Source: Callipepla californica brunnescens
Lineage: Eukaryota; Chordata; Aves; Galliformes; Odontophoridae
DNA length: 64,000 nucleotides
Direction of reading: 5' to 3'
Assembly: GCA_023055505.1 (NCBI GenBank)
Contig: JALIRH010000023.1
Span: 9,058,423-9,122,422, forward strand
The notes beneath the pieces were generated by a model, which saw only the letters and a list, made by a program, of their open reading frames with translations, ran no database searches and had not been told where the DNA came from. The translations under genes were made by a program, and so were the position numbers. Below are positions 1 to 55,970 of this stretch, in pieces. Each line of letters opens with the position of its first letter. The first letter of the stretch is position 1.

Positions 1-314
1 GCTGCTTGCTGCTCAAGGCTGCCCGTTGCTGCTGCTGTTCTCCCCGCTTCTTCCACCCCTGCTCTTTTGCCTCAGACCGTCGGAGCCGCTAGCAACCAGG
101 CCGCCCCTCGGATCCCGGCTGGTGACTTTCCCGGCGCTGTGCAAGCCCTTGCTTCTTTCCTATCTTTCCTATTGCTCGCCTTCCCTTCCCCATCACCCTT
201 ACTGGTAACAGTGTCCGCCTTCCCCTTCCCCATGTCCCTGGTCTCTACTGGTAATAAACTGGTCAGACCAACATTTAAACCGTTTGTCTCCCTCCTTTAT
301 ATTGGAGCGTGACA
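1..314 (+). mobile_element. LTR-like element, 3' part (cut by window start)
   Basis: This is the same sequence as 7467-7780, where the full element is visible. It contains an AATAAA at 253-258 followed by about 55 bp ending in GTGACA, as expected for the R/U5 end of a retroviral LTR. No primer-binding site follows, so it is more likely a solo LTR than part of a provirus. Confidence 0.4.
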
Positions 315-2321
315 GACGGAAAGCACGGGAGGAAGGGAAGCAGAATTATCTGCTCAAACATAAGAATGAAGTGTTATTTTTTTCTATACTTTTACCTTTA
401 CTTTTAGTTTCAGCAGGCTTGAAAATATCAATATAGGAATTGCTGTTTCATCTGTTTCAGTGCTTAACAGATTACAGCAAACAAACAAACCCTTCCATTT
501 GAATACTTCTACACTTCCTCCTGCACTGAACAACTCACATTTAAATGACTGGAAGTACTATTCCAGAACTTCTCCAAAAAACATATAGCAAAAGATGACG
601 ATCACACAGAAAGGGATATCAACTAACAAATATGTAACTTTTAACATTTAAGGTTTTATCGGGGGCAAAGTTTTTAGCGTATCTCTTTTCTATGCTCTAA
701 GTAGTGTGAGGAGATGACCTCAGAACAGTCAACTTGTATTCATGTGGGAGGAACTGGATCGTTTGTACCAGCCCCTGATGGGTATTTGGTCCACAGGGAC
801 ACTAGAGCTAGTGTGAGCTAAGACTTTGCAGCACTCATGCGGCGGTCATCTGAGCTTTAGCACCAGCTTTACTGTATTGCGCAACAACTTGCTAACACAC
901 TTAGGTACAGTGCACCCACGTCTCCTCCAGATACATTTATTTGTGTGCATAAGATGAATACCAGCAATGAGGAGGGAAATTGTCAGCTTTAAACACTTCA
1001 GATTGGCGTGATATGAAGCAAAACTGTTCAGATGGGGAATAAGAAGTTTCATCAGATGTATAGCTTGTACATGAGTGATAAGTTGAGTGATGCATCATGT
1101 TTAATACTTTTCTTCATTTATTCTAAAGTGAGGGCTTCTGGTTTTTTTTTTGTTGTTTTTTTTTTTTGTTTGTTTGTTTGTTTTCGCACGAAATGCTCCT
1201 TTTATCCTACATTTCCTGTGCAACAATTGAAGTGAAGACATTTTTACAGAGTGGGAACTGTTTTTTTCAGAATTTCTTATTACATCTTCATGTCTACGGT
1301 GGCCTGGCCTACCAGCTGCAGTTTGCAAGATTTTAACAGAAACAACCTTGTATGTTGTTGCTTCTTACAATGCTTCAGTCGTAGTTTTTAATGGGGTTAA
1401 TATTCTATGCCAGTGACTTGAGAACCAAAGCACTGATATGTATGTGTACGTGTTTCCATATGTACATTTCTAAGATACATAATATGCATTTCAATTAAAG
1501 AACTGTAAAAGACAAAGGAATTTCCCTTGGAAGTACCTTGAAGAGTTTCAAATTCCATACGTGAGATACTGGTGCTCAAAGCTCTGTTTACCCATAAAAA
1601 TGAGCATTGCTTTCTTACTCCTAAAAGATGAAAATAGGTTGTTTGGGAGATACTTTATGCAAAGTCAAGACTCAAAGATTCAGGTATCAGCTAGACAAGA
1701 TGGAAGTTCACGTTCTCTTCATCTCTGTATGCTTCGATGCGTGTGAAAAATCTTTTGGTTTATTTTCCCCGCTCCGGGCTTTTTTTACCTTAGAATTCTT
1801 CCAGGAAATCAGTAGTGTGAGTTTCAAGGAGAGAGACATACAACAACCCTTTTTTTGTTTAATTTCTGCACTGTTCCAAGTAGATTACCTTATTCATATA
1901 TATATCAGAAGACGAATTAGAATTCTTAAAAGCGTGGGTGATCGAACCAGGTAAAATTTTCGTCATGAATGTTTCATGTGCACATTTTCCAACACAAGCA
2001 AAAATTTAAGAGGACTCTAAAGGCCTAAAGTTTTCCAGAACAGATGCAAGAAAATCCACTTGTTCTCTCCTAAATAGTGAAGAATACGGCCCTAAACCTG
2101 AATGTTTAAGAAGTAGTATGAGATTCAACATGAAGTTAAAAGTTTGCAGTTTCAACTAAAATCACCAATGCCACGAGTTAAGTCACTTGGATTTCCCATA
2201 GAACTGCACAGCTTGGGAAGATACACTTGGGAGAGAGCCAGCACCGATGGGATAGCTGTTGTATGTAAATTTCCCGTTACGCTTGATGTTTATGGACATA
2301 ATAAAAATGGACATGAGTAAT
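315..2321. other. AT-rich spacer of unit copy 1, no gene seen
   Basis: About 2 kb of AT-rich DNA with only short, unrelated open frames on both strands. The one obvious structure is a T-rich simple repeat with TTTG runs at about 1140-1182. No CR1 similarity or protein domain was recognised. As the region upstream of the RING promoter it could hold distal regulatory sites, but nothing specific is visible. Confidence 0.7.
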
Positions 2322-2652
2322 GTCGATGACATCACTGAGCAGCAGACTGTGACATCACCGGGTGACGCATTGTGACTGCTCAGCCCTCACTGCTCCTCTC
2401 CTGGGGCGCTGGCGGAACCCGGCTCATTCTGGCTCGTTCCTGGACCCTGCTGAGCAGTTGTGCGAGGCTTGGAGGTCGAGCAACGGTTTATCTGTGCTGT
2501 GCTGTGCTGGGTCGTGCCTGGGGCTGCTTGCAGCATCTCAGTGCCCGAGCCCAGAGCATTGCTCGTTTCCCCGGCCCTGCCTAGTGCAGGCAACCGGGGC
2601 GCTACAGAGCGCACCCGCAGCAGCGGAGGTGAGTGGTGCGGGGACACCTGGG
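2322..2652 (+). promoter_or_regulatory. promoter / first-exon block A, copy 1
   Basis: This 331-bp block is repeated almost exactly at 3239-3565. I see only two substitutions and a 4-base indel. It starts with clustered CRE-like motifs: TGACATCA twice, then TGACGCA. It continues into a GC-rich stretch and ends with a strong splice-donor context, GGAG|GTGAGT, with the junction at 2628/2629. No TATA box is evident. The nearest good acceptor is at 3710, so exon A could splice to the RING coding exon across a 1082-bp intron. Its use as an alternative first exon is inferred. Confidence 0.6.
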
Positions 2653-2834
2653 GCTTATGGGGCAGCTGCAGGGAGTTACATTCACATCGTTGCCAAAGTG
2701 TATGCTTGAACCTCATCCTGAGCCTCAGTAGACAAACAGTGAAAGTGTCTCTTGCTCAGCATCCTGTGTCATGCCTAACAGCCTGCATGATTGGCAGGCA
2801 AGGGCTGACCTCCCCTGGGAAACCTCTGTGCCAG

Positions 2835-3236
2835 CTGAGGAAGGGTCTGCAGACAAGTCTTGTGAGCAGCAGGGAATTAGGGTTACTTAGCCTACAGAAA
2901 AATGGCATCAGGGGAGACCTTACTGCTCTCTACAGTCATCTCAGTGGAGTCAGAATGGAGGTGGGAATTGGTCTGCTCTCCCAGGAAACAAATGACAAGA
3001 TGCAATGGTGTCAGGCTGCACCAGCAAAGGTTTGGGTTGATGTTAGGAAAATTATATTCACTAAAAGTGTTACGAAGCATTGGAACGGGCTGCCAGAAAG
3101 TAGCTGTATCCACACCTCTGAAGTAAATCTAAAGGACATGTTGATTCAGTCTTTGGGAACTCGGTGTATTGGCAGATTTCTCAGTTCTAGGGTAGTTTTG
3201 GAACTAGATGGTCTTGGAGTACTTTTAGAACCCAGT
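2835..3236 (+). mobile_element. CR1 LINE fragment between the two promoter blocks
   Basis: The translated + strand resembles the last part of CR1 ORF2, with short motifs such as LGLLSLQKNG, GDLTALYSHL and KHWNGLPESS in the CR1 order. The nucleotide end (GGAACTAGATGGTCTT) resembles the CR1 3' untranslated end but lacks the terminal short repeat. It is old and truncated. It produces a long open frame across 2460-3269 together with promoter block A, which I do not consider a gene. Confidence 0.8.
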
Positions 3237-3238
3237 GA

Positions 3239-3565
3239 GTCGATGACATCACTGAGCAGCAGACTGTGACATCACCGGGTGACGCACTGTGACTGCTCAG
3301 CCCTCACTGCTCCTCTCCTGGGGCGCTGGCGGAACCCGGCTCATTCTGGCTCCTGGACCCTGCTGAGCAGTTGTGCAAGGCTTGGAGGTCGAGCAACGGT
3401 TTATCTGTGCTGTGCTGTGCTGGGTCGTGCCTGGGGCTGCTTGCAGCATCTCAGTGCCCGAGCCCAGAGCATTGCTCGTTTCCCCGGCCCTGCCTAGTGC
3501 AGGCAACCGGGGCGCTACAGAGCGCACCCGCAGCAGCGGAGGTGAGTGGTGCGGGGACACCTGGG
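3239..3565 (+). promoter_or_regulatory. promoter / first-exon block B of the RING gene, copy 1
   Basis: This 327-bp block is a near-identical copy of 2322-2652. It carries CRE-like TGACATCA (twice) and TGACGCA motifs within the first 60 bp, then GC-rich sequence, then the donor GGAG|GTGAGT at 3541/3542. It is the proximal promoter and noncoding first exon for the RING coding exon. The only ATG near its start opens a nine-codon frame ending in TGA. The RING frame stays open back through the splice junction into this exon, but I see no in-frame ATG there. CRE-like sites are common in CREB/CREM-driven, often germline, promoters; that inference is weak here. Confidence 0.65.
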
Positions 3566-3710
3566 TCGCTCAGGGCAGCCATGGGTTAGGGTAGGGTGCA
3601 CGAGATAAACCAGTGTGGGGCTTGGGAAGGCTTCCTGCTGAGGAATGGACTGCTGAGGACGTTCAGACGCTGGGACAGAGAGTGACTGTGAGCCTCTTCC
3701 TCTCTTGCAG
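3542..3710 (+). other. 169-bp intron of the RING gene, copy 1
   Basis: The donor GTGAGT at 3542 and the pyrimidine-rich acceptor ending TTGCAG at 3710 are both strong. Splicing joins noncoding exon B to the coding exon, which begins TGTGACACC at 3711. The intron is short for a vertebrate and has no recognisable repeat. Confidence 0.7.
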
Positions 3711-3788
3711 TGTGACACCACCGCTGCAGCTCTGGTGAAGAACAGCTTGTCATCTGCAGTTCTCCCAGCCCACTGCAGCTCAAAGACC

Positions 3789-4829
3789 ATGGCTGCGGAA
3801 GAGCCATGGACGTGTCCCATCTGCGGCGATGTGCGACAGGACGTCGCACGTGTGACTCCATGCAACCACACGTTCTGTGCTGGCTGCATCCATCGGTGGG
3901 CGAGGCTGAAAGACACGTGCCCACTGTGCAGGGCGGCCATGAAGAGCATCCGGGTCTCCATGCGGGGAAACACGTTCCTTGAATGCACGGTGTCCCCACC
4001 CGCATTGCCAGTGCCCATCGGCTTCGGCACCACCACCGGCCCCAGCGGCACCGCGGCAGCTGCTGAACACAGCAATGTGGAAGCAGAGAGAGTGGGTGGC
4101 CTTCTACCGGAGCAGTGGGCAGCACTCTTCAGGGAGAGACGCGACCTCCTGTGGCCGGTGCTGCCCTGGCTGGAGGAGATACTCTCCGTCATCCCGGGGA
4201 TTCGCCCCTGGCAGATCATTATAACGGTGAGCACGATCCAGGTACTGCTATGCCAGGTGGGCCTGGACAGGGCCGCCCTGGTGCGGCGCGCCCATAGCAT
4301 CCTTGGAGCCGTCACCGCACCACTGATGGAAAGGCTCATCAACGTCATCGTGATGCTGTGCGGCCCGGAGGCCCGGAGGCTGCTGGGCCTCCCAGAGCCC
4401 AACAACGCCCAGCAGCAGGAGGACGGCCGCGAAGAGCCCGGCGTGGAACAGCAGCACGAGGACGGCCCCGCGGCCCCGTCCGGTCCCGCCGCGTCCCCGC
4501 AGGGCACCGCCGCCCCCAGCGCCGCTCCCTACGACGGCTCCGCGGGTCCCGAAGCGGAGGAGCTCCCCGGCACGTCCGGCGGGGCTCTGGGCGGGGGTGC
4601 CGCCGAGCTCCCCGCCGCACCCAGCCCCGCGCAGCGGGAGCGGCCCGGCGACGAGCCGGGTCCCGAGGCGGCCGGTCCCTCCGAGCAGGGACGCAGCCGC
4701 GGCCCCTCCGCTCGCGGCCGGGGCGGGAAGCGCTCGGCCGGTGGGCCCCGGCGCCCCACGAAGAGGAGGGCCGCCAGCGCCCAGCGCGCTCCTCCGCCCC
4801 ACAAGAGGCGGCCTCCCCGACGCCCCTAG
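3789..4829 (+). CDS. RING-finger protein, TOPORS/ICP0-like N-terminal RING, copy 1
   Basis: A 346-residue protein encoded in one exon. The start chosen is the ATG at 3789, in an excellent Kozak context (GACCATGG). The frame is open 84 bases further upstream but without an ATG. A C3HC4 RING spans residues 9-47: Cys9, Cys12, Cys25, His27, Cys30, Cys33, Cys44 and Cys47, with Trp37 and the CPLC signature. This implies E3 ubiquitin-ligase activity through an E2 partner. Residues 105-200 are hydrophobic and probably helical, with no family I recognise. Residues 201-297 are rich in Ala, Pro, Gly and Glu. Residues 298-346 are strongly Arg/Lys-rich with nuclear-localisation-like clusters. The RING-first layout resembles TOPORS, but the protein is much shorter and the middle does not obviously match. 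The exon's 3' half is very GC-rich beside AT-rich flanks. An identical copy lies at 11255-12295. Confidence 0.88.
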   Translation: MAAEEPWTCPICGDVRQDVARVTPCNHTFCAGCIHRWARLKDTCPLCRAAMKSIRVSMRGNTFLECTVSPPALPVPIGFGTTTGPSGTAAAAEHSNVEAERVGGLLPEQWAALFRERRDLLWPVLPWLEEILSVIPGIRPWQIIITVSTIQVLLCQVGLDRAALVRRAHSILGAVTAPLMERLINVIVMLCGPEARRLLGLPEPNNAQQQEDGREEPGVEQQHEDGPAAPSGPAASPQGTAAPSAAPYDGSAGPEAEELPGTSGGALGGGAAELPAAPSPAQRERPGDEPGPEAAGPSEQGRSRGPSARGRGGKRSAGGPRRPTKRRAASAQRAPPPHKRRPPRRP

Positions 4830-4868
4830 CCGTTCTTAACACCGCCTGTCCCTTATGATGTAGCGTAT

Positions 4869-4896
4869 AATAAACAAAGGATGTTATAAAAATAAA
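4869..4896 (+). terminator. polyadenylation signals of the RING gene, copy 1
   Basis: Two AATAAA hexamers, at 4869-4874 and 4891-4896, start 40 and 62 bases after the stop codon. The 3' untranslated region would therefore be only about 60-90 bases long. Confidence 0.75.
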
Positions 4897-4914
4897 GGAA
4901 GCGTGGAATCACGC

Positions 4915-5604
4915 ATTGTTCCTAGCGTCCAGTTTTCGAGACGGTTCCCCCTTCACGAGCACCTCTTACGCGCGCTGTGCCATAGAACCCGTGCCCATTG
5001 AGCTGGGCCATCTGATGATTCATATTGAAACTAATGCCACCAAAAAAAGCAAAGAGTCATACTAATTGGGGATTCCAATTAGTGCTCAGAGACACAGAGG
5101 CCCCCATTTGCTGCCCAGATAACCTCTCTGGAGAGGATTTTTCTGAGGTGAGCAGTTATCAGGGAAGACCGAAGCAAAAAATGTGTCAAGTACTTCAGCC
5201 TTCTCCCTGTCTCTTGATACCAGCCTGCTTGTGTCACTCACTAAGGGTTGCCAGTTGGGAGGACAGAGAGCACTGCTTGCACAGCCAATCCCTTTAGCAT
5301 GCTTCCAAAGGATGTAAAGTCCCTTTAAATGTTTTGTACTTTCCTTGTTTCAGTGTCCTGAGACCCTACTGGAATGACAGTGAGCTAATTGTAGTCGTCT
5401 TGTCAGATGTGGTAGAGCCTTCCTGAAGCCTCTGACACTTGACCCCAGAACATTTTATTTTCCTCAGTCTGATGGGATGCTGGCTGCCTTGAGTTTTGTG
5501 GTTTTGCCTTTGAAATAACCTATCTGTGCATAGGTTATCTGTAGTTTCCACACTCCTTGTTTTTGTCCCTCATCGCACTTTGTTTATATTTCATCCTATA
5601 GCCC
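4915..5604. other. spacer downstream of the RING gene, copy 1
   Basis: No gene seen. A short stretch at about 5095-5142 (CATTTGCTGCCCAGATAACC) resembles a stretch at 17888-17930 that runs into a CR1 relic, so part of this block may be very old CR1. The rest is unassigned. Confidence 0.5.
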
Positions 5605-6565
5605 TGACAGCCACCGGTTAATGGCTCAGTGTCTGGATGGAGATCAGTGACAAGCAATGTCCCCCAGATTACTTTTTGTTGTCTTCAACAACAGTGACAC
5701 TGACAGTGGGACCAAGTGTACCCTCTGCGAGTTTGCTGCTGATGCCAAGCTGTGGGGTGCAGTTGTCACACCAAAGGGATGGGATGCCATCCAGAGAGAC
5801 CTAAACAGGCTTGAGCAGAGGTCTCAGGTGAATATCACAAGGTTCAGCAAATCGAAGTGCAAGGTCTTGCACCTGGGTCAAGGCAACCCTGACTATCAAT
5901 TCCAGCTGCAGAATGAAAGGATTTTGCACAGCCTTGCAAAAAGGACCTGAGGGCAGTGGTGGATGGGAAGGTAGACAAGAGACAGCAGTGCACCCTTGAA
6001 GCCCAGAAAGCCAACCGTGTCCTGGGCTGAATAAAATAAATGGCCAGCAGGTCGAGGGAGGTGATCCTTACCTGGAGTACTGCATCCAGATGTGGATTCC
6101 TCAGTACAGGAGAGACATAGACCTTTTGGAGCAGATCCAGAGTACGGCCACAAAGATGATCCATGACGTGGAACACCTGCCCTATGAGAACAGACTGAGA
6201 GAGCTGGGGCTGTTCAGCCTGGAGAAGAGAATGCTGCAAGGTGAGCTGATAGCGGCCTCTCGGTATCTGAAGGGGAGCTACAGGGAAGAAGGGGACAGAC
6301 ACTGTTGCAGGGTTTGTGGTGACAGAACAAGGGGGTATTGTTTCAAGCTCAGAGAGGGTAGATTTGGGTTACTATCAAGGAAAAACCTTCTATAGAGAGG
6401 TTGGTGGAGCCCTGTTACAGGTTGCCCATTTTGCTGGTGGATGCCCCATCACTGGAGACTTTCCAGGCGAGGCTGGACTAGGCCCTGGGTAACCTCATCT
6501 AGCTATGGATGTTCCGTGTTCATTGCAGGGGTGATGGATTAGATGGCCTTCAGAGGTCCCTCTTT
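5605..6565 (+). mobile_element. CR1 LINE, decayed ORF2 3' half, copy 1
   Basis: The translated frames contain CR1 reverse-transcriptase C-terminal motifs in order: CKVLHLGQGN, then IQMWIPQYRRDIDLLEQIQS, then LRELGLFSLEKRML. Frameshifts and stops are frequent, and there is an internal deletion near 6040-6075. It ends in the CR1-typical GATGGCCTTCAGAGGTCCC, without the terminal short repeat. The segment from 6266 on is the part that differs from copy 2, so it also marks the recombination boundary of the array. Confidence 0.9.
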
Positions 6566-6784
6566 TCAATTTCATAGAAAATGCTAATATAGCTTTAATA
6601 ATCAAGTGGTTGAAAGGATTCCATTAGTATCAGCAAGTGAATACAACGTGAATGTATTCTGGAAACATCAACGTCCAAACAGAACTCTTCTCGTAGTAAA
6701 GAAAAAAATGAAGGGTTCCTTTTATCCAACAGAAGAAGCAGACTCGTCATCTCTGCTTTCAGTAATCTGTCATTAATTTGTCAT
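6566..6784. other. short AT-rich spacer before the LTR
   Basis: No gene or recognised repeat. It is present only in copy 1, because copy 2 leaves the unit within the preceding CR1. Confidence 0.6.
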
Positions 6785-7780
6785 TGTCACCTGTTACCTC
6801 AGTGCGGACTTGATTGTAATCCAATTGACAAAGTAGTGACATAGCATGAGTTGAAGCAGTTTTTAACGCAACATGTTATGTTAAAATTAGCTTTATACAC
6901 TGCATAGCAGTATGAGAGTCAGGGGGCTGGAGGGTGGTGTAAGAGACTATTATTTTATCCCGTTGCCTCAGAGTTTGCTGATGAACGTGTCCAAACGTCT
7001 CCAAGCTGGTCCTGGACGAGGTTGTCAAATCCTTTGTCTAAGGGACAAGCAGATGGGCTTGTGCTGGGGCAACGAAAGGGAGATAAGCTGCTGCTCAGTG
7101 TCCGCTTAACACTTTTTTGTGCGGTACTCATCTCCGTGGGGAGACAGCCATCTCAGGAGACGCTTGCCTGGCACACTAGCACGGGATTTGTTACGTAGGC
7201 AAGAGAAATGGAGGATAAAAGAGAGATCGACTGCCATGAGACTGCTGGAGTTGTTTCTGTTGGTGTTGTTGGTGTGCGTTCTTCCATCGGAAGCCTCCTG
7301 AGCTGATTCCCTGCTGCTGAACTCCCTCCTGGGCCTGCTGCCTGAGACATGCTGCTTTCTCCTGGACCTTGCTGCTCCATTGAGGTGTTCTGCCATCTGA
7401 ACCCTCACGAGCTGATGGCTGTTTGCCGCTTCTCCAGTGCTGACCCAGTGCCGCTTCTCCAGGACAGCTGCTTGCTGCTCAAGGCTGCCCGTTGCTGCTG
7501 CTGTTCTCCCCGCTTCTTCCACCCCTGCTCTTTTGCCTCAGACCGTCGGAGCCGCTAGCAACCAGGCCGCCCCTCGGATCCCGGCTGGTGACTTTCCCGG
7601 CGCTGTGCAAGCCCTTGCTTCTTTCCTATCTTTCCTATTGCTCGCCTTCCCTTCCCCATCACCCTTACTGGTAACAGTGTCCGCCTTCCCCTTCCCCATG
7701 TCCCTGGTCTCTACTGGTAATAAACTGGTCAGACCAACATTTAAACCGTTTGTCTCCCTCCTTTATATTGGAGCGTGACA
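6785..7780 (+). mobile_element. LTR-like element spanning the unit junction
   Basis: Candidate solo LTR of about 1 kb. The proposed ends TGTCAC (6785) and GTGACA (7775-7780) form a 6-bp terminal inverted repeat of the TG...CA type. A TATA-like ATAAAA lies at 7215-7220 and AATAAA at 7719-7724, about 56 bases before the end. No matching target-site duplication is visible: TGTCAT precedes and GACGGA follows. No primer-binding site or polypurine tract adjoins it. The 3' end is better supported than the start. It could be an old avian endogenous-retrovirus LTR carrying its own promoter and poly(A) signal, placed upstream of each RING gene. Confidence 0.4.
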
Positions 7781-9787
7781 GACGGAAAGCACGGGAGGAA
7801 GGGAAGCAGAATTATCTGCTCAAACATAAGAATGAAGTGTTATTTTTTTCTATACTTTTACCTTTACTTTTAGTTTCAGCAGGCTTGAAAATATCAATAT
7901 AGGAATTGCTGTTTCATCTGTTTCAGTGCTTAACAGATTACAGCAAACAAACAAACCCTTCCATTTGAATACTTCTACACTTCCTCCTGCACTGAACAAC
8001 TCACATTTAAATGACTGGAAGTACTATTCCAGAACTTCTCCAAAAAACATATAGCAAAAGATGACGATCACACAGAAAGGGATATCAACTAACAAATATG
8101 TAACTTTTAACATTTAAGGTTTTATCGGGGGCAAAGTTTTTAGCGTATCTCTTTTCTATGCTCTAAGTAGTGTGAGGAGATGACCTCAGAACAGTCAACT
8201 TGTATTCATGTGGGAGGAACTGGATCGTTTGTACCAGCCCCTGATGGGTATTTGGTCCACAGGGACACTAGAGCTAGTGTGAGCTAAGACTTTGCAGCAC
8301 TCATGCGGCGGTCATCTGAGCTTTAGCACCAGCTTTACTGTATTGCGCAACAACTTGCTAACACACTTAGGTACAGTGCACCCACGTCTCCTCCAGATAC
8401 ATTTATTTGTGTGCATAAGATGAATACCAGCAATGAGGAGGGAAATTGTCAGCTTTAAACACTTCAGATTGGCGTGATATGAAGCAAAACTGTTCAGATG
8501 GGGAATAAGAAGTTTCATCAGATGTATAGCTTGTACATGAGTGATAAGTTGAGTGATGCATCATGTTTAATACTTTTCTTCATTTATTCTAAAGTGAGGG
8601 CTTCTGGTTTTTTTTTTGTTGTTTTTTTTTTTTGTTTGTTTGTTTGTTTTCGCACGAAATGCTCCTTTTATCCTACATTTCCTGTGCAACAATTGAAGTG
8701 AAGACATTTTTACAGAGTGGGAACTGTTTTTTTCAGAATTTCTTATTACATCTTCATGTCTACGGTGGCCTGGCCTACCAGCTGCAGTTTGCAAGATTTT
8801 AACAGAAACAACCTTGTATGTTGTTGCTTCTTACAATGCTTCAGTCGTAGTTTTTAATGGGGTTAATATTCTATGCCAGTGACTTGAGAACCAAAGCACT
8901 GATATGTATGTGTACGTGTTTCCATATGTACATTTCTAAGATACATAATATGCATTTCAATTAAAGAACTGTAAAAGACAAAGGAATTTCCCTTGGAAGT
9001 ACCTTGAAGAGTTTCAAATTCCATACGTGAGATACTGGTGCTCAAAGCTCTGTTTACCCATAAAAATGAGCATTGCTTTCTTACTCCTAAAAGATGAAAA
9101 TAGGTTGTTTGGGAGATACTTTATGCAAAGTCAAGACTCAAAGATTCAGGTATCAGCTAGACAAGATGGAAGTTCACGTTCTCTTCATCTCTGTATGCTT
9201 CGATGCGTGTGAAAAATCTTTTGGTTTATTTTCCCCGCTCCGGGCTTTTTTTACCTTAGAATTCTTCCAGGAAATCAGTAGTGTGAGTTTCAAGGAGAGA
9301 GACATACAACAACCCTTTTTTTGTTTAATTTCTGCACTGTTCCAAGTAGATTACCTTATTCATATATATATCAGAAGACGAATTAGAATTCTTAAAAGCG
9401 TGGGTGATCGAACCAGGTAAAATTTTCGTCATGAATGTTTCATGTGCACATTTTCCAACACAAGCAAAAATTTAAGAGGACTCTAAAGGCCTAAAGTTTT
9501 CCAGAACAGATGCAAGAAAATCCACTTGTTCTCTCCTAAATAGTGAAGAATACGGCCCTAAACCTGAATGTTTAAGAAGTAGTATGAGATTCAACATGAA
9601 GTTAAAAGTTTGCAGTTTCAACTAAAATCACCAATGCCACGAGTTAAGTCACTTGGATTTCCCATAGAACTGCACAGCTTGGGAAGATACACTTGGGAGA
9701 GAGCCAGCACCGATGGGATAGCTGTTGTATGTAAATTTCCCGTTACGCTTGATGTTTATGGACATAATAAAAATGGACATGAGTAAT
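7781..9787. other. AT-rich spacer of unit copy 2, no gene seen
   Basis: Counterpart of 315-2321, with the same short frames and the T-rich/TTTG simple repeat at about 8606-8648. Nothing further is recognised. Confidence 0.7.
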
Positions 9788-10118
9788 GTCGATGACATCA
9801 CTGAGCAGCAGACTGTGACATCACCGGGTGACGCATTGTGACTGCTCAGCCCTCACTGCTCCTCTCCTGGGGCGCTGGCGGAACCCGGCTCATTCTGGCT
9901 CGTTCCTGGACCCTGCTGAGCAGTTGTGCGAGGCTTGGAGGTCGAGCAACGGTTTATCTGTGCTGTGCTGTGCTGGGTCGTGCCTGGGGCTGCTTGCAGC
10001 ATCTCAGTGCCCGAGCCCAGAGCATTGCTCGTTTCCCCGGCCCTGCCTAGTGCAGGCAACCGGGGCGCTACAGAGCGCACCCGCAGCAGCGGAGGTGAGT
10101 GGTGCGGGGACACCTGGG
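9788..10118 (+). promoter_or_regulatory. promoter / first-exon block A, copy 2
   Basis: Counterpart of 2322-2652, including the clustered CRE-like motifs and the donor GGAG|GTGAGT at 10094/10095. Confidence 0.6.
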
Positions 10119-10300
10119 GCTTATGGGGCAGCTGCAGGGAGTTACATTCACATCGTTGCCAAAGTGTATGCTTGAACCTCATCCTGAGCCTCAGTAGACA
10201 AACAGTGAAAGTGTCTCTTGCTCAGCATCCTGTGTCATGCCTAACAGCCTGCATGATTGGCAGGCAAGGGCTGACCTCCCCTGGGAAACCTCTGTGCCAG

Positions 10301-10702
10301 CTGAGGAAGGGTCTGCAGACAAGTCTTGTGAGCAGCAGGGAATTAGGGTTACTTAGCCTACAGAAAAATGGCATCAGGGGAGACCTTACTGCTCTCTACA
10401 GTCATCTCAGTGGAGTCAGAATGGAGGTGGGAATTGGTCTGCTCTCCCAGGAAACAAATGACAAGATGCAATGGTGTCAGGCTGCACCAGCAAAGGTTTG
10501 GGTTGATGTTAGGAAAATTATATTCACTAAAAGTGTTACGAAGCATTGGAACGGGCTGCCAGAAAGTAGCTGTATCCACACCTCTGAAGTAAATCTAAAG
10601 GACATGTTGATTCAGTCTTTGGGAACTCGGTGTATTGGCAGATTTCTCAGTTCTAGGGTAGTTTTGGAACTAGATGGTCTTGGAGTACTTTTAGAACCCA
10701 GT
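10301..10702 (+). mobile_element. CR1 LINE fragment between promoter blocks, copy 2
   Basis: Counterpart of 2835-3236, with the same CR1 ORF2 C-terminal motifs and truncation. Confidence 0.8.
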
Positions 10703-10704
10703 GA

Positions 10705-11031
10705 GTCGATGACATCACTGAGCAGCAGACTGTGACATCACCGGGTGACGCACTGTGACTGCTCAGCCCTCACTGCTCCTCTCCTGGGGCGCTGGCGGAA
10801 CCCGGCTCATTCTGGCTCCTGGACCCTGCTGAGCAGTTGTGCAAGGCTTGGAGGTCGAGCAACGGTTTATCTGTGCTGTGCTGTGCTGGGTCGTGCCTGG
10901 GGCTGCTTGCAGCATCTCAGTGCCCGAGCCCAGAGCATTGCTCGTTTCCCCGGCCCTGCCTAGTGCAGGCAACCGGGGCGCTACAGAGCGCACCCGCAGC
11001 AGCGGAGGTGAGTGGTGCGGGGACACCTGGG
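10705..11031 (+). promoter_or_regulatory. promoter / first-exon block B of the RING gene, copy 2
   Basis: Counterpart of 3239-3565. The donor is at 11007/11008. It retains the same CRE-like motif cluster and the same differences from block A. Confidence 0.65.
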
Positions 11032-11176
11032 TCGCTCAGGGCAGCCATGGGTTAGGGTAGGGTGCACGAGATAAACCAGTGTGGGGCTTGGGAAGGCTTC
11101 CTGCTGAGGAATGGACTGCTGAGGACGTTCAGACGCTGGGACAGAGAGTGACTGTGAGCCTCTTCCTCTCTTGCAG
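11008..11176 (+). other. 169-bp intron of the RING gene, copy 2
   Basis: GTGAGT donor and TTGCAG acceptor, matching the copy 1 intron. Confidence 0.7.
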
Positions 11177-11254
11177 TGTGACACCACCGCTGCAGCTCTG
11201 GTGAAGAACAGCTTGTCATCTGCAGTTCTCCCAGCCCACTGCAGCTCAAAGACC

Positions 11255-12295
11255 ATGGCTGCGGAAGAGCCATGGACGTGTCCCATCTGCGGCGATGTGC
11301 GACAGGACGTCGCACGTGTGACTCCATGCAACCACACGTTCTGTGCTGGCTGCATCCATCGGTGGGCGAGGCTGAAAGACACGTGCCCACTGTGCAGGGC
11401 GGCCATGAAGAGCATCCGGGTCTCCATGCGGGGAAACACGTTCCTTGAATGCACGGTGTCCCCACCCGCATTGCCAGTGCCCATCGGCTTCGGCACCACC
11501 ACCGGCCCCAGCGGCACCGCGGCAGCTGCTGAACACAGCAATGTGGAAGCAGAGAGAGTGGGTGGCCTTCTACCGGAGCAGTGGGCAGCACTCTTCAGGG
11601 AGAGACGCGACCTCCTGTGGCCGGTGCTGCCCTGGCTGGAGGAGATACTCTCCGTCATCCCGGGGATTCGCCCCTGGCAGATCATTATAACGGTGAGCAC
11701 GATCCAGGTACTGCTATGCCAGGTGGGCCTGGACAGGGCCGCCCTGGTGCGGCGCGCCCATAGCATCCTTGGAGCCGTCACCGCACCACTGATGGAAAGG
11801 CTCATCAACGTCATCGTGATGCTGTGCGGCCCGGAGGCCCGGAGGCTGCTGGGCCTCCCAGAGCCCAACAACGCCCAGCAGCAGGAGGACGGCCGCGAAG
11901 AGCCCGGCGTGGAACAGCAGCACGAGGACGGCCCCGCGGCCCCGTCCGGTCCCGCCGCGTCCCCGCAGGGCACCGCCGCCCCCAGCGCCGCTCCCTACGA
12001 CGGCTCCGCGGGTCCCGAAGCGGAGGAGCTCCCCGGCACGTCCGGCGGGGCTCTGGGCGGGGGTGCCGCCGAGCTCCCCGCCGCACCCAGCCCCGCGCAG
12101 CGGGAGCGGCCCGGCGACGAGCCGGGTCCCGAGGCGGCCGGTCCCTCCGAGCAGGGACGCAGCCGCGGCCCCTCCGCTCGCGGCCGGGGCGGGAAGCGCT
12201 CGGCCGGTGGGCCCCGGCGCCCCACGAAGAGGAGGGCCGCCAGCGCCCAGCGCGCTCCTCCGCCCCACAAGAGGCGGCCTCCCCGACGCCCCTAG
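11255..12295 (+). CDS. RING-finger protein, TOPORS/ICP0-like N-terminal RING, copy 2
   Basis: The 346-residue product is identical to that at 3789-4829, with the same ATG, RING cysteines and histidine, helical middle, low-complexity linker and basic tail. There are no disabling changes, so both copies could be expressed. The identical reading frame, together with identical noncoding flanks, says nothing by itself about selection, because the whole unit is homogeneous. Being beside the array edge, this copy has different downstream flanking DNA from copy 1 beyond 14052. Confidence 0.88.
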   Translation: MAAEEPWTCPICGDVRQDVARVTPCNHTFCAGCIHRWARLKDTCPLCRAAMKSIRVSMRGNTFLECTVSPPALPVPIGFGTTTGPSGTAAAAEHSNVEAERVGGLLPEQWAALFRERRDLLWPVLPWLEEILSVIPGIRPWQIIITVSTIQVLLCQVGLDRAALVRRAHSILGAVTAPLMERLINVIVMLCGPEARRLLGLPEPNNAQQQEDGREEPGVEQQHEDGPAAPSGPAASPQGTAAPSAAPYDGSAGPEAEELPGTSGGALGGGAAELPAAPSPAQRERPGDEPGPEAAGPSEQGRSRGPSARGRGGKRSAGGPRRPTKRRAASAQRAPPPHKRRPPRRP

Positions 12296-12334
12296 CCGTT
12301 CTTAACACCGCCTGTCCCTTATGATGTAGCGTAT

Positions 12335-12362
12335 AATAAACAAAGGATGTTATAAAAATAAA
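12335..12362 (+). terminator. polyadenylation signals of the RING gene, copy 2
   Basis: AATAAA at 12335-12340 and 12357-12362, placed as in copy 1. Confidence 0.75.
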
Positions 12363-12380
12363 GGAAGCGTGGAATCACGC

Positions 12381-13070
12381 ATTGTTCCTAGCGTCCAGTT
12401 TTCGAGACGGTTCCCCCTTCACGAGCACCTCTTACGCGCGCTGTGCCATAGAACCCGTGCCCATTGAGCTGGGCCATCTGATGATTCATATTGAAACTAA
12501 TGCCACCAAAAAAAGCAAAGAGTCATACTAATTGGGGATTCCAATTAGTGCTCAGAGACACAGAGGCCCCCATTTGCTGCCCAGATAACCTCTCTGGAGA
12601 GGATTTTTCTGAGGTGAGCAGTTATCAGGGAAGACCGAAGCAAAAAATGTGTCAAGTACTTCAGCCTTCTCCCTGTCTCTTGATACCAGCCTGCTTGTGT
12701 CACTCACTAAGGGTTGCCAGTTGGGAGGACAGAGAGCACTGCTTGCACAGCCAATCCCTTTAGCATGCTTCCAAAGGATGTAAAGTCCCTTTAAATGTTT
12801 TGTACTTTCCTTGTTTCAGTGTCCTGAGACCCTACTGGAATGACAGTGAGCTAATTGTAGTCGTCTTGTCAGATGTGGTAGAGCCTTCCTGAAGCCTCTG
12901 ACACTTGACCCCAGAACATTTTATTTTCCTCAGTCTGATGGGATGCTGGCTGCCTTGAGTTTTGTGGTTTTGCCTTTGAAATAACCTATCTGTGCATAGG
13001 TTATCTGTAGTTTCCACACTCCTTGTTTTTGTCCCTCATCGCACTTTGTTTATATTTCATCCTATAGCCC
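12381..13070. other. spacer downstream of the RING gene, copy 2
   Basis: Counterpart of 4915-5604. No gene seen; possibly part of a very old CR1. Confidence 0.5.
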
Positions 13071-14052
13071 TGACAGCCACCGGTTAATGGCTCAGTGTCT
13101 GGATGGAGATCAGTGACAAGCAATGTCCCCCAGATTACTTTTTGTTGTCTTCAACAACAGTGACACTGACAGTGGGACCAAGTGTACCCTCTGCGAGTTT
13201 GCTGCTGATGCCAAGCTGTGGGGTGCAGTTGTCACACCAAAGGGATGGGATGCCATCCAGAGAGACCTAAACAGGCTTGAGCAGAGGTCTCAGGTGAATA
13301 TCACAAGGTTCAGCAAATCGAAGTGCAAGGTCTTGCACCTGGGTCAAGGCAACCCTGACTATCAATTCCAGCTGCAGAATGAAAGGATTTTGCACAGCCT
13401 TGCAAAAAGGACCTGAGGGCAGTGGTGGATGGGAAGGTAGACAAGAGACAGCAGTGCACCCTTGAAGCCCAGAAAGCCAACCGTGTCCTGGGCTGAATAA
13501 AATAAATGGCCAGCAGGTCGAGGGAGGTGATCCTTACCTGGAGTACTGCATCCAGATGTGGATTCCTCAGTACAGGAGAGACATAGACCTTTTGGAGCAG
13601 ATCCAGAGTACGGCCACAAAGATGATCCATGACGTGGAACACCTGCCCTATGAGAACAGACTGAGAGAGCTGGGGCTGTTCAGCCTGGAGAAGAGAATGC
13701 TGCAAGGTGAGCTGATAGCGGCCTCTCGGTCTCTGAAGGGGAGCTACAGGGAAGAAGGGGACAGACACTGTTGCAGGTTTTGTGGTGATAGAACAAGGGG
13801 ATATTGTTTCAAGCTCAGAGAGGGTAGATTTGGGTTACTATAGAGAAAAAATCTTTTATGGTGAGGATGGTGAATGGAGCCCTGTTACAGGTTGCCCATT
13901 TTGCTGGTGGATGCCCCATCAGTGGAGACTTTCAAGGTGAGGTTGGACTAGGCCCTTGGTAACCTGATCTAGCGATGGATGTTCCGTGTTCATTGCAGGG
14001 GTGATGGACTAGATGGCCTTCAGAGGTCCCTTCCAACTCCAAGGATTCTGTT
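13071..14052 (+). mobile_element. CR1 LINE at the right edge of the array
   Basis: The same decayed CR1 as 5605-6565 up to about 13731, then a tail that is clearly a different CR1 copy. The tail differs by scattered substitutions and small indels (for example around 13840-13870) and ends GGTCCCTTCCAACTCCAAGG, the usual CR1 3' end, which copy 1 has lost. The element looks like a chimera of two CR1 sequences. Confidence 0.88.
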
Positions 14053-14447
14053 AAAGGGCCATTTGATGAAAGGCTAGGTAATCTTTGTCTGTTCAGCCTA
14101 GGGAAAAGAAGAACAAGGGGAGATCTGATTAATGTTTATCTAGAGGAAATTGGGAGGCAAATGGATGAGGCCTGGCTCTTCTCAGTGGTTTGTAGTGACA
14201 GGATAAGGAGCAATGGCCTAGAATTGGACATGGGAAGTTCCATATGGACATGTGGAAGAACCTTTTTACTGTTTGACAGAGCACTGGAACAGGCTGTCCA
14301 GAGAGGCTGTGGAGTCTCTTTCTCTGGATATGCTTAAGATTCACCTGGACACCTACCTGTGCAACCTGTTGTAGGTTCTGCTTTAGCAGGGGGGTTGGAC
14401 TCGGTGATTTCTTGAGGTCCCTTCCCTGTGATTCTGTGACTCTGTGA
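14053..14447 (+). mobile_element. CR1 LINE 3' end, different subfamily
   Basis: CR1-like order of motifs: a GAAAGGCTAGGTAATC... start, a region resembling FSLGKRRTRGDLINVYLEE, then GCACTGGAACAGGCTGTCC, ending GAGGTCCCTTCCCTGTGATT plus a short TCTGTGA tandem. It is abutted directly by the CR1 of the array edge. Confidence 0.85.
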
Positions 14448-17869: not shown

Positions 17870-19960
17870 AGAGGCAATGAGAAACTCATTTGCTGCTCAG
17901 ATAATCTCTCTAGAGAGGTTTACAGCAAACTGGAATACTGTGTTTGATGCTGTAAGCTTCAAGGGAAGAGATGTGGATGAGTGGCCTTCTACACTGAGAA
18001 GTGGATAGATTGTGAAGACCTGTGTCTACAAAACATCCATGATCAGCTTCAGAGCTTCTGAATTAACAATAGGTACCAGACTAGTAAAGGACATCTGGTA
18101 GTATGAGTCTACTACAGACTTCCCGTTCAATGTGAGCCTGTTGAAGAGAACTTCTTGCCTCAGCTACAAGAAGCACTGACCTCTCAGGCCCTCATCCTCA
18201 TGAGGAATTTCAGTCATCCAAATGTCCAATGAAAAAGCGATACATCAGGCTGAAATGGACTCCTGGAGTCCATTCAGGACACTTCCTTATCCAACTACTA
18301 GATAAATCAACCAGCTGTGAAATATTACTGGACCTGATGCTCGTGAGTCTTGAGATCATTAAACAGGTCAAAATTGGAGGCAATCTGAGCTGTAGAGACA
18401 GTGTCAAAGTTGACTTTGTGATCTTGAGGAATATGAACCTGGCAAAGAACAGAGTCAGGACCTTGAAATTTAGAAGAGAAAACTTTTGTCTGTTTAAGGA
18501 GTTATTGGATAAAATTTCCTGGGAAAATATCCTTAGGGAGAAAGGAACAAAACAGAGCTGGCAGTTTTTTAGGATAACATTCTGAGAGTACAAGAGCTCT
18601 CCATCTCCCAGCAGAGAAAATCAAGGATGAGAAATCAAACAGGAAACTGGCATTGCTGAAGAAGGACCTGTTGTCAAATTGAGGGAAAAGAGAGGAACGT
18701 ACAGGCAGTGGAACCAGGGATGGATGGCCTGGAAATAATGACAGCTGTACATGCAGCAATGTGATCAGAAAAGTCAAGGAATAAATCAAACTGACTTGGT
18801 GAGGAATATGAATTCTACACGTACATTTGTCAGAAAAAAAAAGACCAAGGAGTGTGTATCCCCTCCGATAAAGAGGGAAAAATGCACCAATGGATATAGG
18901 GAAGGTTGAGGTACTCAACAAGTTCTTTGCTTCAGCCTTCTCTGACGGTCAGGCTTCCCACATCTTATGTTACTGAGCAACTAGGTGGGAGTCAAGGGAA
19001 CAAAATTCCTTCTACAGTAAAGAAATAGCAAGTTCAAAACCACTTGCTGAGACTGAATGTGTACAAGTCTATGGGGCCAAATGATATGCATCCCAGGGAA
19101 CTGTCTAATGTGATTGCCAATCCAGTGTCCATCATTATGAAGTCATGGCTGTCAAGTGAAGTCTCAGTGTCTGAAAGAAGGAAAACTTCAGTCCCATTTT
19201 TAAGAAAGGGAAAAAGGAAGATCTGAAAAACTGTAGGCTGATGAACCCCACATCTGTGTCTGGAGAGATCATGGAACAGATCCCTCTAGAAGCTATATTA
19301 AGGTGCATGAAAACTGGGGTGGTGATTCCAGATAGCCAACAAAACTTTACCAAGGGCAGATAATGCCTGACAAATCTGGTAGCCTTCTACGATAGTGCAG
19401 TGTCATCAATAAAGAAAGGAAAACTGATGCTCTGCCCTCATGAAGCCCCACCCAGAGTAGGTCCCTGTGTTCAGGCCTGGGACTCCCAGTGCAAGAATTG
19501 CAGCTGTTGGAGTGGGTCCAGAGGAAATCCACAAGGGTGGTTGAAGACAGGCCAAGAGACCTGGGCTTATTCAGCCTAGAGAAGAGAAGGCACCAGGGAG
19601 GCTTTATCGTTGCTATCCAGTACTGCAGGAGAGCTTACAAACAGGAGGGAGTGCAACTTTTTATGTGGGAAGGCACTGACGGGACAAGAGGAATGATTTT
19701 AGATTTAAAGAAGGGGAATATACATTACATGTTAGGAAGAAACTTTTTGCTCAGAGATTGCAAAAGCACTGCCACAGGCTGCCCAAAGAAGCTGTGGATA
19801 CCCCAGCTTGGTATCCTTGGTGGCATTCAAGGCCAGATTGGATGGGGCTCTAAGCAGCCTGATCTGTCTGACTGTGCTCATGGTAAATATGCTGGAACTA
19901 GATGACCTTTGAGGTCCCTTCCAATCCAAACTGTTCTATGATTCTGTGACACTGTGTGTC
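17870..19960 (+). mobile_element. long CR1 LINE relic, endonuclease end through 3' end
   Basis: This is the longest CR1 in the window. A late endonuclease segment (LPQLQEALTSQALILMRNF-like) lies at about 18150-18220. The endonuclease-RT linker at 18229-18585 is open for 118 codons. The SMGPNDMHPRELS segment is at about 19060-19105. The RT core is missing: 19381-19440 jumps straight to the thumb/C-terminal region. A normal 3' end with GGTCCCTTCCAATCC and a TTCTATGATTCTGTGA short tandem closes it near 19950. Multiple frameshifts show it is dead. Confidence 0.88.
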
Positions 19961-24757: not shown

Positions 24758-24988
24758 GAGAGCCTCCGAGCCAAAAGGGACAGTCTTTTAGCTGACAAAT
24801 AGGCTCTCCAGTCCAATTTAGATAGCCTCCAGTCTGAGCAAGATGCCTTCCAGTCTCAACAATATGCTCTCCAGTCCAACATGGACGCACTCCAGTCCAC
24901 ACGTGATGCCCTCTGGTCTGAGAGAGATGTCCTCCAAACTGAGCATGATGCCCTCCAATCCAAACTGAATAGTCCCCAGTCTCAACAA
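24758..24988 (+). repeat. 11 x 21-bp repeat encoding heptads (coiled-coil-like)
   Basis: Eleven consecutive 21-base units without any indel. Read on the + strand each gives seven residues of the form D-A-L-Q-S-x-x (DALQSTR, DALWSER, DVLQTEH, DALQSKL). One unit begins with a TAG stop, and another TGA lies just before the array. The heptad period and Leu/hydrophobic spacing are those of a coiled coil. It adjoins the ERV-L-like fragment but in the opposite orientation. It may be the remains of a retroelement Gag coiled-coil, or of a host gene exon; I cannot decide which. Confidence 0.8.
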
Positions 24989-25019
24989 GTCAGGCTTTTT
25001 ATTTTAACATGAACAGGGG

Positions 25020-51653: not shown

Positions 51654-52190
51654 TGAATCATAGAATGGTTTGAGTTGGAAGGGATGTTTGTTAACTCCCA
51701 ACTCCCTGCTATAGTCAGGGACATCTCCCACTAGACAGGTTGCACAAAGCCCCATCCAGCCTGGCCTTTAATGCTTCCAGGGTGAGAGCATCCACAACCT
51801 CCCTGGGAAGCCCGATCCAGTGTCTCAGCAGCCAAACAGTAAAGAATTTTTTCCTAATATGTAGTCTAAATCTATGTTCTTCAGGTTTAAAGCCATTTCC
51901 TCTTGTCTTGTTGCTACATGCCCTTATAAAATGTCCCTCCCCGGCTTTCATGCAGGTCTCCACAAGGAAGGCTGCTATAAGGTCCCACTAGAGCTTTCTC
52001 TTCTCCAGGCTGAAAAATCCCAGTTCTCTCAGCCTGTCCCTGTAGGGGAGATGCTCCAGTCCTCTGATCATCTTCATGGCCCTCCTCTGGACCTGCTCCA
52101 ACAGCTCCATGTCCTTCTCGTACTGGCGGCTCCAGAACAGAATGCAGTACTCCAGATGGGGTATCACAATAGCAGAGTCTTAATAAAGGT
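51654..52190 (-). mobile_element. CR1 LINE 3' end, antisense
   Basis: On the + strand it reads ATCATAGAATGGTTTGAGTT, then CCCCATCCAGCCTGGCC and AGCATCCACAACCTCCCTGG, and ends near CTCCAGATGGGGTATCAC. This is a classic CR1 3' end including the last part of ORF2. It is less diverged than most others here. Confidence 0.92.
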
Positions 52191-54669: not shown

Positions 54670-55970
54670 CATAAATAATTATGGATCATACGTGGAGACG
54701 CCAGAAAGAACAAGAAAGGCATCTATAGGTACCTCAACCAGAAAAGGAAAGTGCAGGATGGAGTGCCCCCCATAGGGACTGACACAGGCAGGCTGGTAAC
54801 AAGGAGAAGGTTGAGTTACTTAACATTTTGCCTTGGTCTTCCCTAATAACTGTTCTCCACACAGCCCTCAAACATTCAGTTTGGTATGATGGAACTGGAT
54901 AAGCAACATCTCTCCCACTGTAGGTGAAGATCAGATTCATAACTGCCTGAGGAACATGAACATTCGTAAGTCTATGAGCCTTGATGAGATACATCCTAGA
55001 GTCCTGAGGGAATTGTCTGATGTGGTTGCCAAGCCACTCTCTATAATATTAGAGAAGTCAAGGCAATCAAGATAAGTCCCTCATGACCGAAAAAAGGCAG
55101 CATCACACCCAATTTAGAAACAGTAAATAGGATGACCCTGAGAACTACTGACACTGCATCAGTGAACAAAGGAAAAGCCACGCATGTCACCTACCTTGAT
55201 TTCATTAAGGCCTTTGATATGGTACCCCACAACATCCTTCCCTCCATACTGGAAAGATATGGATTTGATTCGTGGACTGTTCAATGGATGAAGGGCTGGC
55301 TGCAGGACCAAATCCAGAGAGTGGTGGTCAGTGGCTCAGTGTCTGGATGGAGATTGGTGGTGTATGGTGTCCCCCACGGACTCTTTAATATTTTCATCAA
55401 GACATTGACAACAAGGTCGAGTGCACCCTCAGCAAATCAATACACCAGGATTGGATGTCATTCAGAAGGCTCAAAAACAGGCTTGAGCAGTGGGCCTGGG
55501 AGAGCCTCATAAAGTTAAACAAATCCAATGCAAGATCTTGCATCTGGGTCAAGGCAATCTTCTTTACCAATATAAGCTGGAGGATGAAAGGATTGGGCAC
55601 AGTCCTGCTGAAAAAGACCTGAGATTACTAGTGGATAGCAAGCTGGACATGAGCCAGCAATTTGCTCTTACAGCCCAGAAAGCCATCTATATCCCAGGCT
55701 GCATCCAAAGAAGTGTGGCCAGCAAGTTCACAGAGGTGACCCTGCTTCTCTATTCTGTGCTAGTGAGGCCTCACCTGGAGTCCTGCATCCAGATGTGGAG
55801 TGTTCAGTACAAGAGAGATGTGGAGCTGTTGGAATGTGTCCAGAGAAGGGGTGAGGCTGGATCAGGCCCTGGGTACATTGTTGTGTCCCTCTTCATTGCA
55901 GAGTTATTGGACTAGATGGCCTTCAAATGTCCCTTCCAACTCTAAGGATTTATGATTCTATGATCACATC
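54670..55970 (+). mobile_element. CR1 LINE, RT region to 3' end
   Basis: Contains an ORF2 segment before the RT, then the RT palm with YLDFIKAFDMVPHNILPS at about 55190-55245 and VVVSGSVSGWR and YGVPHG downstream. An internal deletion removes the catalytic ADD region. The C-terminal motifs ILHLGQGN, LLVDSKLDMSQ and VLVRPHLESCIQMW follow. A second deletion precedes the 3' end (TAGATGGCCTTCAAATGTCC) and the TATGATTCTATGATCA short tandem. Confidence 0.9.

What the first reader, a model, noticed from the sequence alone, without database searches (positions are those of the whole stretch)
1..14052. Near-perfect 7466-bp tandem array carrying an intact RING gene
Two head-to-tail units look identical over about 6.27 kb, including AT-rich noncoding DNA, simple repeats and dead CR1s. 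Old CR1s cannot stay identical by selection, so the unit was duplicated very recently or is kept uniform by conversion. The array may extend left beyond the window. Multi-copy ampliconic genes with this profile are often on sex chromosomes or in fast-evolving immune or germline families.
Basis: partly seen in the sequence, partly recalled or inferred. Interest (0 to 1): 0.75.

Follow-up and report, generated by a model that had tools for sequence, protein, structure and literature searches.

The report
Recent tandem duplicate of RING gene
In a New World quail-like bird genome, a 7.5-kb block carrying an intact ubiquitin-ligase-type gene sits twice in a row with no differences over 6.3 kb, which is best read as a recent unequal exchange inside an older gene cluster; nothing ties it to a sex chromosome.

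Summary
Window 1-6264 and 7467-13730 are identical (period 7466). The next 297 aligned sites, the 3' tail of a CR1-type element, hold 20 differences plus a 4-bp indel; then homology ends. Each copy carries the same intact 346-codon RING ORF.

The protein belongs to a multi-copy avian TOPORS-like family, closest to New World quails. Three Colinus members share one scaffold.

The two CR1 tails look like old copies of one dead insertion: they share 27 to 30 non-consensus states against 9 private ones, and a 1-bp deletion. So the duplication looks older than its identity. Best reading: one recent unequal crossover, in or near that CR1, within an older cluster. Rivals are long gene conversion, a first duplication between two separate CR1s, and an assembly artefact, which sequence alone cannot exclude.

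Nothing in the window points to a sex chromosome, and nothing excludes one. No protein-coding gene was recognised in the remaining 50 kb.

Side result: in some quail pairs the predicted-disordered tail is far more conserved than the folded domain, though not across the family. A known kind of event, of modest interest.

The parts
1..6264 (.). Identical core of unit copy 1 (the unit continues left of the window)
   Evidence: 0 of 6264 differences from 7467-13730
7467..13730 (.). Identical core of unit copy 2
6265..6561 (+). Diverged 3' tail of the CR1-type element in copy 1 ('R1')
   Evidence: 20 of 297 substitutions and a 4-bp indel against 13731-14031; similarity to other CR1-type copies at 51704-52087, 19542-19919, 55850-55934 and others; the family name CR1 is recalled, no repeat library was available
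13731..14031 (+). Diverged 3' tail of the CR1-type element at the right edge of the array ('R2'); its similarity to other CR1-type copies runs to about 14049
6562..7466 (.). 905-bp segment that closes unit 1 and opens onto unit 2; seen once, with no counterpart right of copy 2
5768..6264 (+). Body of the CR1-type element, identical to 13234-13730
   Evidence: Matches to 55442-55850, 21578-21056 and 52167-51969
3789..4829 (+). RING-finger ORF, 346 aa, copy 1: RING about 8-53, helical domain about 101-205, basic tail 206-346 mostly predicted disordered
   Evidence: ORF; Pfam RING models, best 6.1e-11; model confidence by block
11255..12295 (+). RING-finger ORF, copy 2, identical to copy 1
3239..3579 (+). 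Probable promoter and 5' noncoding exon B of copy 1 (TGACATCA twice, TGACGCA once; GTGAGT splice donor at 3542)
   Evidence: Sequence signals and the direct repeat; transcription untested
2322..2666 (+). Direct-repeat copy A of the same promoter/exon module, with its own splice-donor-like GTGAGT
   Evidence: 96.8% over 347 columns; alignment
9788..10132 (+). Promoter/exon repeat A in unit 2
10705..11045 (+). Promoter/exon repeat B in unit 2
3542..3710 (+). Predicted intron (GTGAGT ... CTCTTGCAG) between noncoding exon 1 and the CDS exon
   Evidence: Sequence; the stretch after the acceptor is conserved in P0011, P0013 and P0113
4869..4896 (+). Two AATAAA poly(A) signals (4869, 4891)

Best explanation
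The window holds the right-hand end of a tandem cluster of TOPORS-like RING genes in a New World quail-like bird. The cluster is older than its present uniformity. In one recent event, sister chromatids or homologues paired out of register by one 7466-bp unit and crossed over in or just left of the CR1-type element at the unit's end. Copy 1's element therefore has the left part of the edge element (R2) and the right tail of the inner one (R1), while the whole unit between became an exact second copy. Steps shown: exact period, zero differences over 6264 bp, a sharp change to 20 of 297 differences inside the CR1 tail, and non-consensus states shared by the two tails. Steps inferred: that a crossover rather than conversion did it, that the unit left of the window is an older and more diverged one, and that the gene is expressed. 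The encoded protein most likely acts as a RING-type ubiquitin ligase: the RING recruits an E2, the helical domain would bind a partner, and the basic tail would give nuclear or nucleic-acid binding. None of these protein roles was tested.
For: Searches give the identity, the boundary and the tail divergence. In one search, of 133 scorable columns, R1 and R2 share 27 states that differ from the consensus of up to five other CR1-type copies in the window; 5 changes are private to R1, 4 to R2. Over six alignment settings the shared count is 27 to 30 and the private ones stay 5 and 4. In all six settings both tails lack one base that the three other copies reaching that spot have (o51, o19, o14); the frame of o51 is open across it, so the common ancestor of R1 and R2 was probably already dead. 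One crossover explains both the exact copy and the hybrid element.
Against: The R1/R2 similarity ends almost exactly at the 3' end of the CR1 element. That is what two independent insertions would show, and is a coincidence under the paralogy reading. The consensus rests on three to five old, divergent copies, so subfamily-diagnostic sites could mimic shared mutations. In a wider alignment o14 also shows a gap near the shared deletion, so only two of three copies speak for it there. The left flank is outside the window, so the predicted older unit was not seen. Zero differences also fit an assembly artefact.
Confidence: 0.5

Rival explanations
1. A first, simple duplication: two separate CR1 insertions of one subfamily flanked a single-copy gene, and non-allelic recombination between them duplicated everything in between.
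For: Homology ends at about the CR1 3' end in both copies. Repeat-mediated non-allelic recombination is discussed for birds (PMC8665684, passages). CR1-F2 shows recent insertions in chicken (PMC9925758, passages), so young related copies are possible in galliforms.
Against: R1 and R2 share 27 to 30 non-consensus states and a 1-bp deletion, yet differ at only 6.7% of sites while the other CR1-type copies differ from them by about 26 to 44%. Independent copies of an active element should not share a broken reading frame. Of seven landfowl genomes only chicken held intact CR1s (PMC8665684, passage).
Confidence: 0.17
2. Long gene conversion: two old units existed and one overwrote at least 6264 bp of the other, leaving only the edge tail diverged.
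For: The same facts on the CR1 tails. In Colinus, two family members share 43 of 43 residues at the start of the tail but only 64 of 88 in the helical domain, a pattern expected of conversion in this family.
Against: A tract above 6 kb with no interruption is long for interlocus conversion (general knowledge); one crossover explains the same data. Family-wide, pairs within a species show no clear tail excess.
Confidence: 0.18
3. Assembly artefact: a heterozygous or repeat-rich locus was laid down twice.
For: Zero differences in 6264 bp is also what the same reads used twice would give; read data were not available.
Against: The tails differ at 20 of 297 sites, and the 905-bp joiner 6562-7466 needs sequence linking R1's tail to the unit start. 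Falsely kept alleles would be expected to differ at about 16 to 26 sites at published quail heterozygosity.
Confidence: 0.15

Closest known systems
Avian 'TOPRS ligase' / 'E3 ubiquitin-protein ligase Topors-like' proteins (Numida, Meleagris, Phasianus, Alectura, Penelope, Grus, Pygoscelis and others; names as the sources give them; many relatives are only 'uncharacterized' and one is called PHRF1)
   Same: Same length class, N-terminal C3HC4 RING, same middle domain, Pro/Ala/Gly-rich basic tail
   Different: The window gene is its own copy: the closest hit listed, Colinus P0001 (297 aa, gene model without the RING), is 87% identical over 79% of the query; the highest-scoring hit with a RING over most of the query, Numida P0003, is 64% over 95%
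Human TOPORS (SUMO-targeted ubiquitin ligase; PMC11402782, passages)
   Same: N-terminal RING; the source names of avian relatives point to it; the best structural match of the middle domain is the RBM25 chain 3v53, which I know from recall as its PWI domain, and a PWI-like domain in TOPORS is recalled too
   Different: About 350 aa against roughly 1000 aa (recalled); SUMO-interacting motifs not established here; no direct comparison with TOPORS was run
Tandem gene clusters evolving by unequal crossing over and gene conversion (general class)
   Same: Head-to-tail units, identical interior, diverged edge
   Different: Nothing in principle; left edge unseen

Membership tests
Avian TOPORS-like RING family | C3HC4 RING with all zinc ligands | tested here: met
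   Pattern found at residues 9-47; Pfam zf-C3HC4_2 6.1e-11, 42.4 bits against a cut-off of 27
Avian TOPORS-like RING family | Sequence homology over most of the protein to members named TOPRS or Topors-like | tested here: met
   P0022 and P0025 52% over 99%; P0040 39% over 88%
Avian TOPORS-like RING family | PWI-like helical domain after the RING | tested here: inconclusive
SUMO-targeted ubiquitin ligase | SUMO-interacting motifs and SUMO-dependent ubiquitin ligase activity | not tested
   No motif scan with a control was run; activity needs the bench
Tandem array by unequal crossing over | Head-to-tail units of constant period, uniform inside and diverged at the edge | tested here: met
   Right edge only, 1.88 units
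Tandem array by unequal crossing over | More than two units or copy-number variation between individuals | not testable with these tools
   Window starts inside the array; no reads or population data
Sex-chromosome ampliconic gene | Location on Z or W | not testable with these tools
   The own-genome search did not complete; no protein-coding gene recognised by eye in 14-64 kb

The most novel reading that the evidence does not exclude
The family evolves in modules. Interlocus conversion keeps the GC-rich basic tail uniform among neighbouring paralogues within a species, while the folded PWI-like domain is left free, or pushed, to diversify. Repeated unequal exchange at the CR1 supplies new copies. 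That would make it a turnover-driven ubiquitin-ligase arsenal with a constant chassis and variable target-binding domains.
Probability: 0.22. Interest if true: 0.6.

Novelty: new member of a known kind. Interest (0 to 1): 0.33.

Why it matters
It is a clean snapshot of how a multi-copy bird gene family renews itself, with a marker (the two CR1 tails) that separates the age of the cluster from the age of the last exchange. If the modular pattern holds, the family would be a testable case of conversion and diversification acting on different domains of one protein. Four searches of the held paper library listed no paper about this family: 1 paper; 0; 2; 302 papers with at least two of three terms, 15 listed. 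One of these, PMC7563548 on chicken liver, names a Topors-like gene once, in a table (passage seen).

Tried and rejected
The 345-bp direct repeats (2322-2666, 3239-3579) were first considered as LTRs of a small retroelement. They carry promoter-like motifs and a splice-donor-like GTGAGT and lie just upstream of the RING ORF, so a duplicated promoter/first exon fits better.

Sex linkage was looked for through other genes in the window: 14-64 kb gave no protein-coding exon that I recognised among ORFs of 58 codons or more, read by eye, no Rfam match and GC of 31 to 44% per 2-kb block right of the array. Of the flank, only two ORFs were run through Pfam: one gave nothing, the other (55087-55512) a reverse-transcriptase match of 26.8 bits, below the cut-off of 29.6.

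RING remnants elsewhere in the window: tblastn returned only the two known copies. Viral contigs: no relative confirmed. Phage records: no match.

Results against the side-reading of tail conversion: over 300 protein pairs, 271 scorable, the tail beats the helical domain in 177, and the means are nearly equal (55.7% helical, 57.9% tail); pairs within a species (23) show 57.6 and 61.1%, pairs between species (248) 55.5 and 57.6%. Window against P0106 shows no domain contrast (6 of 88 and 5 of 43 differ, p 0.50). The striking quail pairs were picked after seeing the data: 5 tests on 15 pairs of six proteins. P0106 ends in LSLIHI, which I recognise from recall as a translated sequencing adapter, so that gene model may be chimeric.

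Foldseek against PDB gave no match at E 0.001 or better; the 50 rows shown are mostly RING or U-box chains. The expression table in PMC7563548 was seen as one passage only, so its contrast is not used.
Full report
Observation. Comparing the window with itself gives one long direct repeat, 1-6561 against 7467-14031, at 99.634% with 20 mismatches and one gap. Base by base, positions 1-6264 and 7467-13730 are identical; the first difference is at 6265. The following 297 aligned positions hold the 20 substitutions, with a 4-bp indel, and then homology stops. Left of copy 2 lies a 905-bp segment (6562-7466) that has no counterpart right of copy 2. The window begins inside a unit, so about 1.88 units are visible. 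The finding is therefore real as sequence. Whether the assembly is right cannot be settled here: no reads were available, and the tool holding whole genomes did not answer.

The gene. Each unit carries the same ORF of 346 codons (3789-4829 and 11255-12295). Pfam RING models match within residues 8-53 (best 6.1e-11), and all zinc ligands are present. Upstream lie a promoter-like stretch with TGACATCA and TGACGCA motifs, a GTGAGT splice donor at 3542 and an acceptor ending at 3710; downstream are two AATAAA signals at 4869 and 4891. The exon start before the ATG is conserved in relatives whose gene calls read into it (P0011 and P0013, P0113). The promoter/first-exon module is itself present twice per unit, at 2322-2666 and 3239-3579 (96.8%), with a 572-bp insert between whose CR1-like part I recognised from its translation only; it had no BLAST match to the other CR1-type copies.

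Relatives. A protein search scored 7996 candidates and returned 41 at E 0.001 or better. Those with a named organism are galliforms (taxonomy recalled), the closest being Colinus virginianus (87% over 79% of the query) and Callipepla squamata (78% over 82%). A profile search returned 120 of 7995 scored at 1e-5 or better, adding other birds such as Grus, penguins, Columba, Bubo and perching birds, many named TOPRS ligase or Topors-like. In both searches only the candidates sharing most words were scored, so the counts are lower bounds. The window is most likely from a New World quail (inference from these hits). Members in Numida lie on contigs of 75, 147 and 194 Mb and in Coturnix on 135 and 176 Mb, so the family is spread over several large contigs; which chromosomes they are was not determined.

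Age of cluster against age of identity. The diverging 297 bp are the 3' tail of a CR1-type element. Both tails resemble other CR1-type copies in the window at about 56 to 74%, yet each other at 94% (426-bp alignment including part of the identical stretch). Against a consensus of up to five other copies, 133 columns could be scored: 96 agree with both tails, 27 differ in both tails alike, 5 in R1 only, 4 in R2 only, and in 1 all differ. Six alignment settings give 27 to 30 shared and always 5 and 4 private. Both tails also lack one base that the three other copies reaching that spot have in all six settings, and the frame of one of these copies is open across it; in the wider alignment one of the three, o14, shows a gap there too. 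This says that R1 and R2 probably descend from one insertion that was already dead, and that they parted long before the 6264 bp to their left became identical. Against it: similarity ends almost exactly at the element's 3' end, as two separate insertions would show, and the consensus is thin. Published heterozygosity of 4.17 and 2.48 variants per kb in bobwhite and scaled quail (PMC5592930, passage in the abstract) would give about 26 or 16 differences between two ordinary alleles over 6264 bp; none is seen.

Mechanism. One out-of-register crossover in or near this CR1 within an older cluster yields what is seen: an exact extra unit, and a hybrid CR1 in copy 1 whose left part equals the edge element and whose right tail is the inner type. 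Long conversion, a first duplication between two independent CR1s, and an assembly artefact remain possible, with the weights given above.

Side result. In the pair window and Callipepla P0002, 23 of 105 residues differ in the helical domain but only 4 of 141 in the tail (Fisher p 2e-6). Window and Colinus P0001 differ at 24 of 105 and 12 of 141 (p 0.002); Colinus P0001 and Callipepla P0002 at 28 of 105 and 9 of 141 (p 2e-5). Within Colinus, P0106 and P0001 differ at 24 of 88 in the helical domain and 0 of 43 in the adjoining stretch (p 2e-5), while P0106 matches the window at 82 of 88 in the helical domain and 38 of 43 in that stretch (p 0.50) (all). That is what tail conversion between neighbours would give. 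But these pairs were chosen after looking; over all 271 scorable pairs of 300 the two domains are about equally conserved (55.7 and 57.9%); and the end of P0106 looks like adapter sequence. I hold this as a lead.

Verdict. It is a known kind of event in a little-described gene family.

Noticed in passing
2322-2666 and 3239-3579 (and +7466): The probable promoter and noncoding first exon of the RING gene is duplicated within each unit, with a CR1-like fragment (recognised by eye) between the copies; the second copy starts right at that fragment's apparent 3' end.
   Followed up: partly
6936-7780: Stretch with a TATA-like GGATAAAAG and a downstream AATAAA followed by GGAGCGTGACA, which may be an old solo LTR; no target-site duplication was recognised by eye.
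   Followed up: no
14058-14425: Another CR1-type fragment begins directly after the end of the edge CR1, so two elements abut at the array's right edge.
   Followed up: no
protein P0106 (Colinus H355_003914): Its last residues LSLIHI read like a translated sequencing adapter (recalled); the record is labelled UNVERIFIED_CONTAM.
   Followed up: no
24803-25000: Short minisatellite-like stretch (period 21) that reads as repeated LQSxxDALQS in one frame.
   Followed up: no
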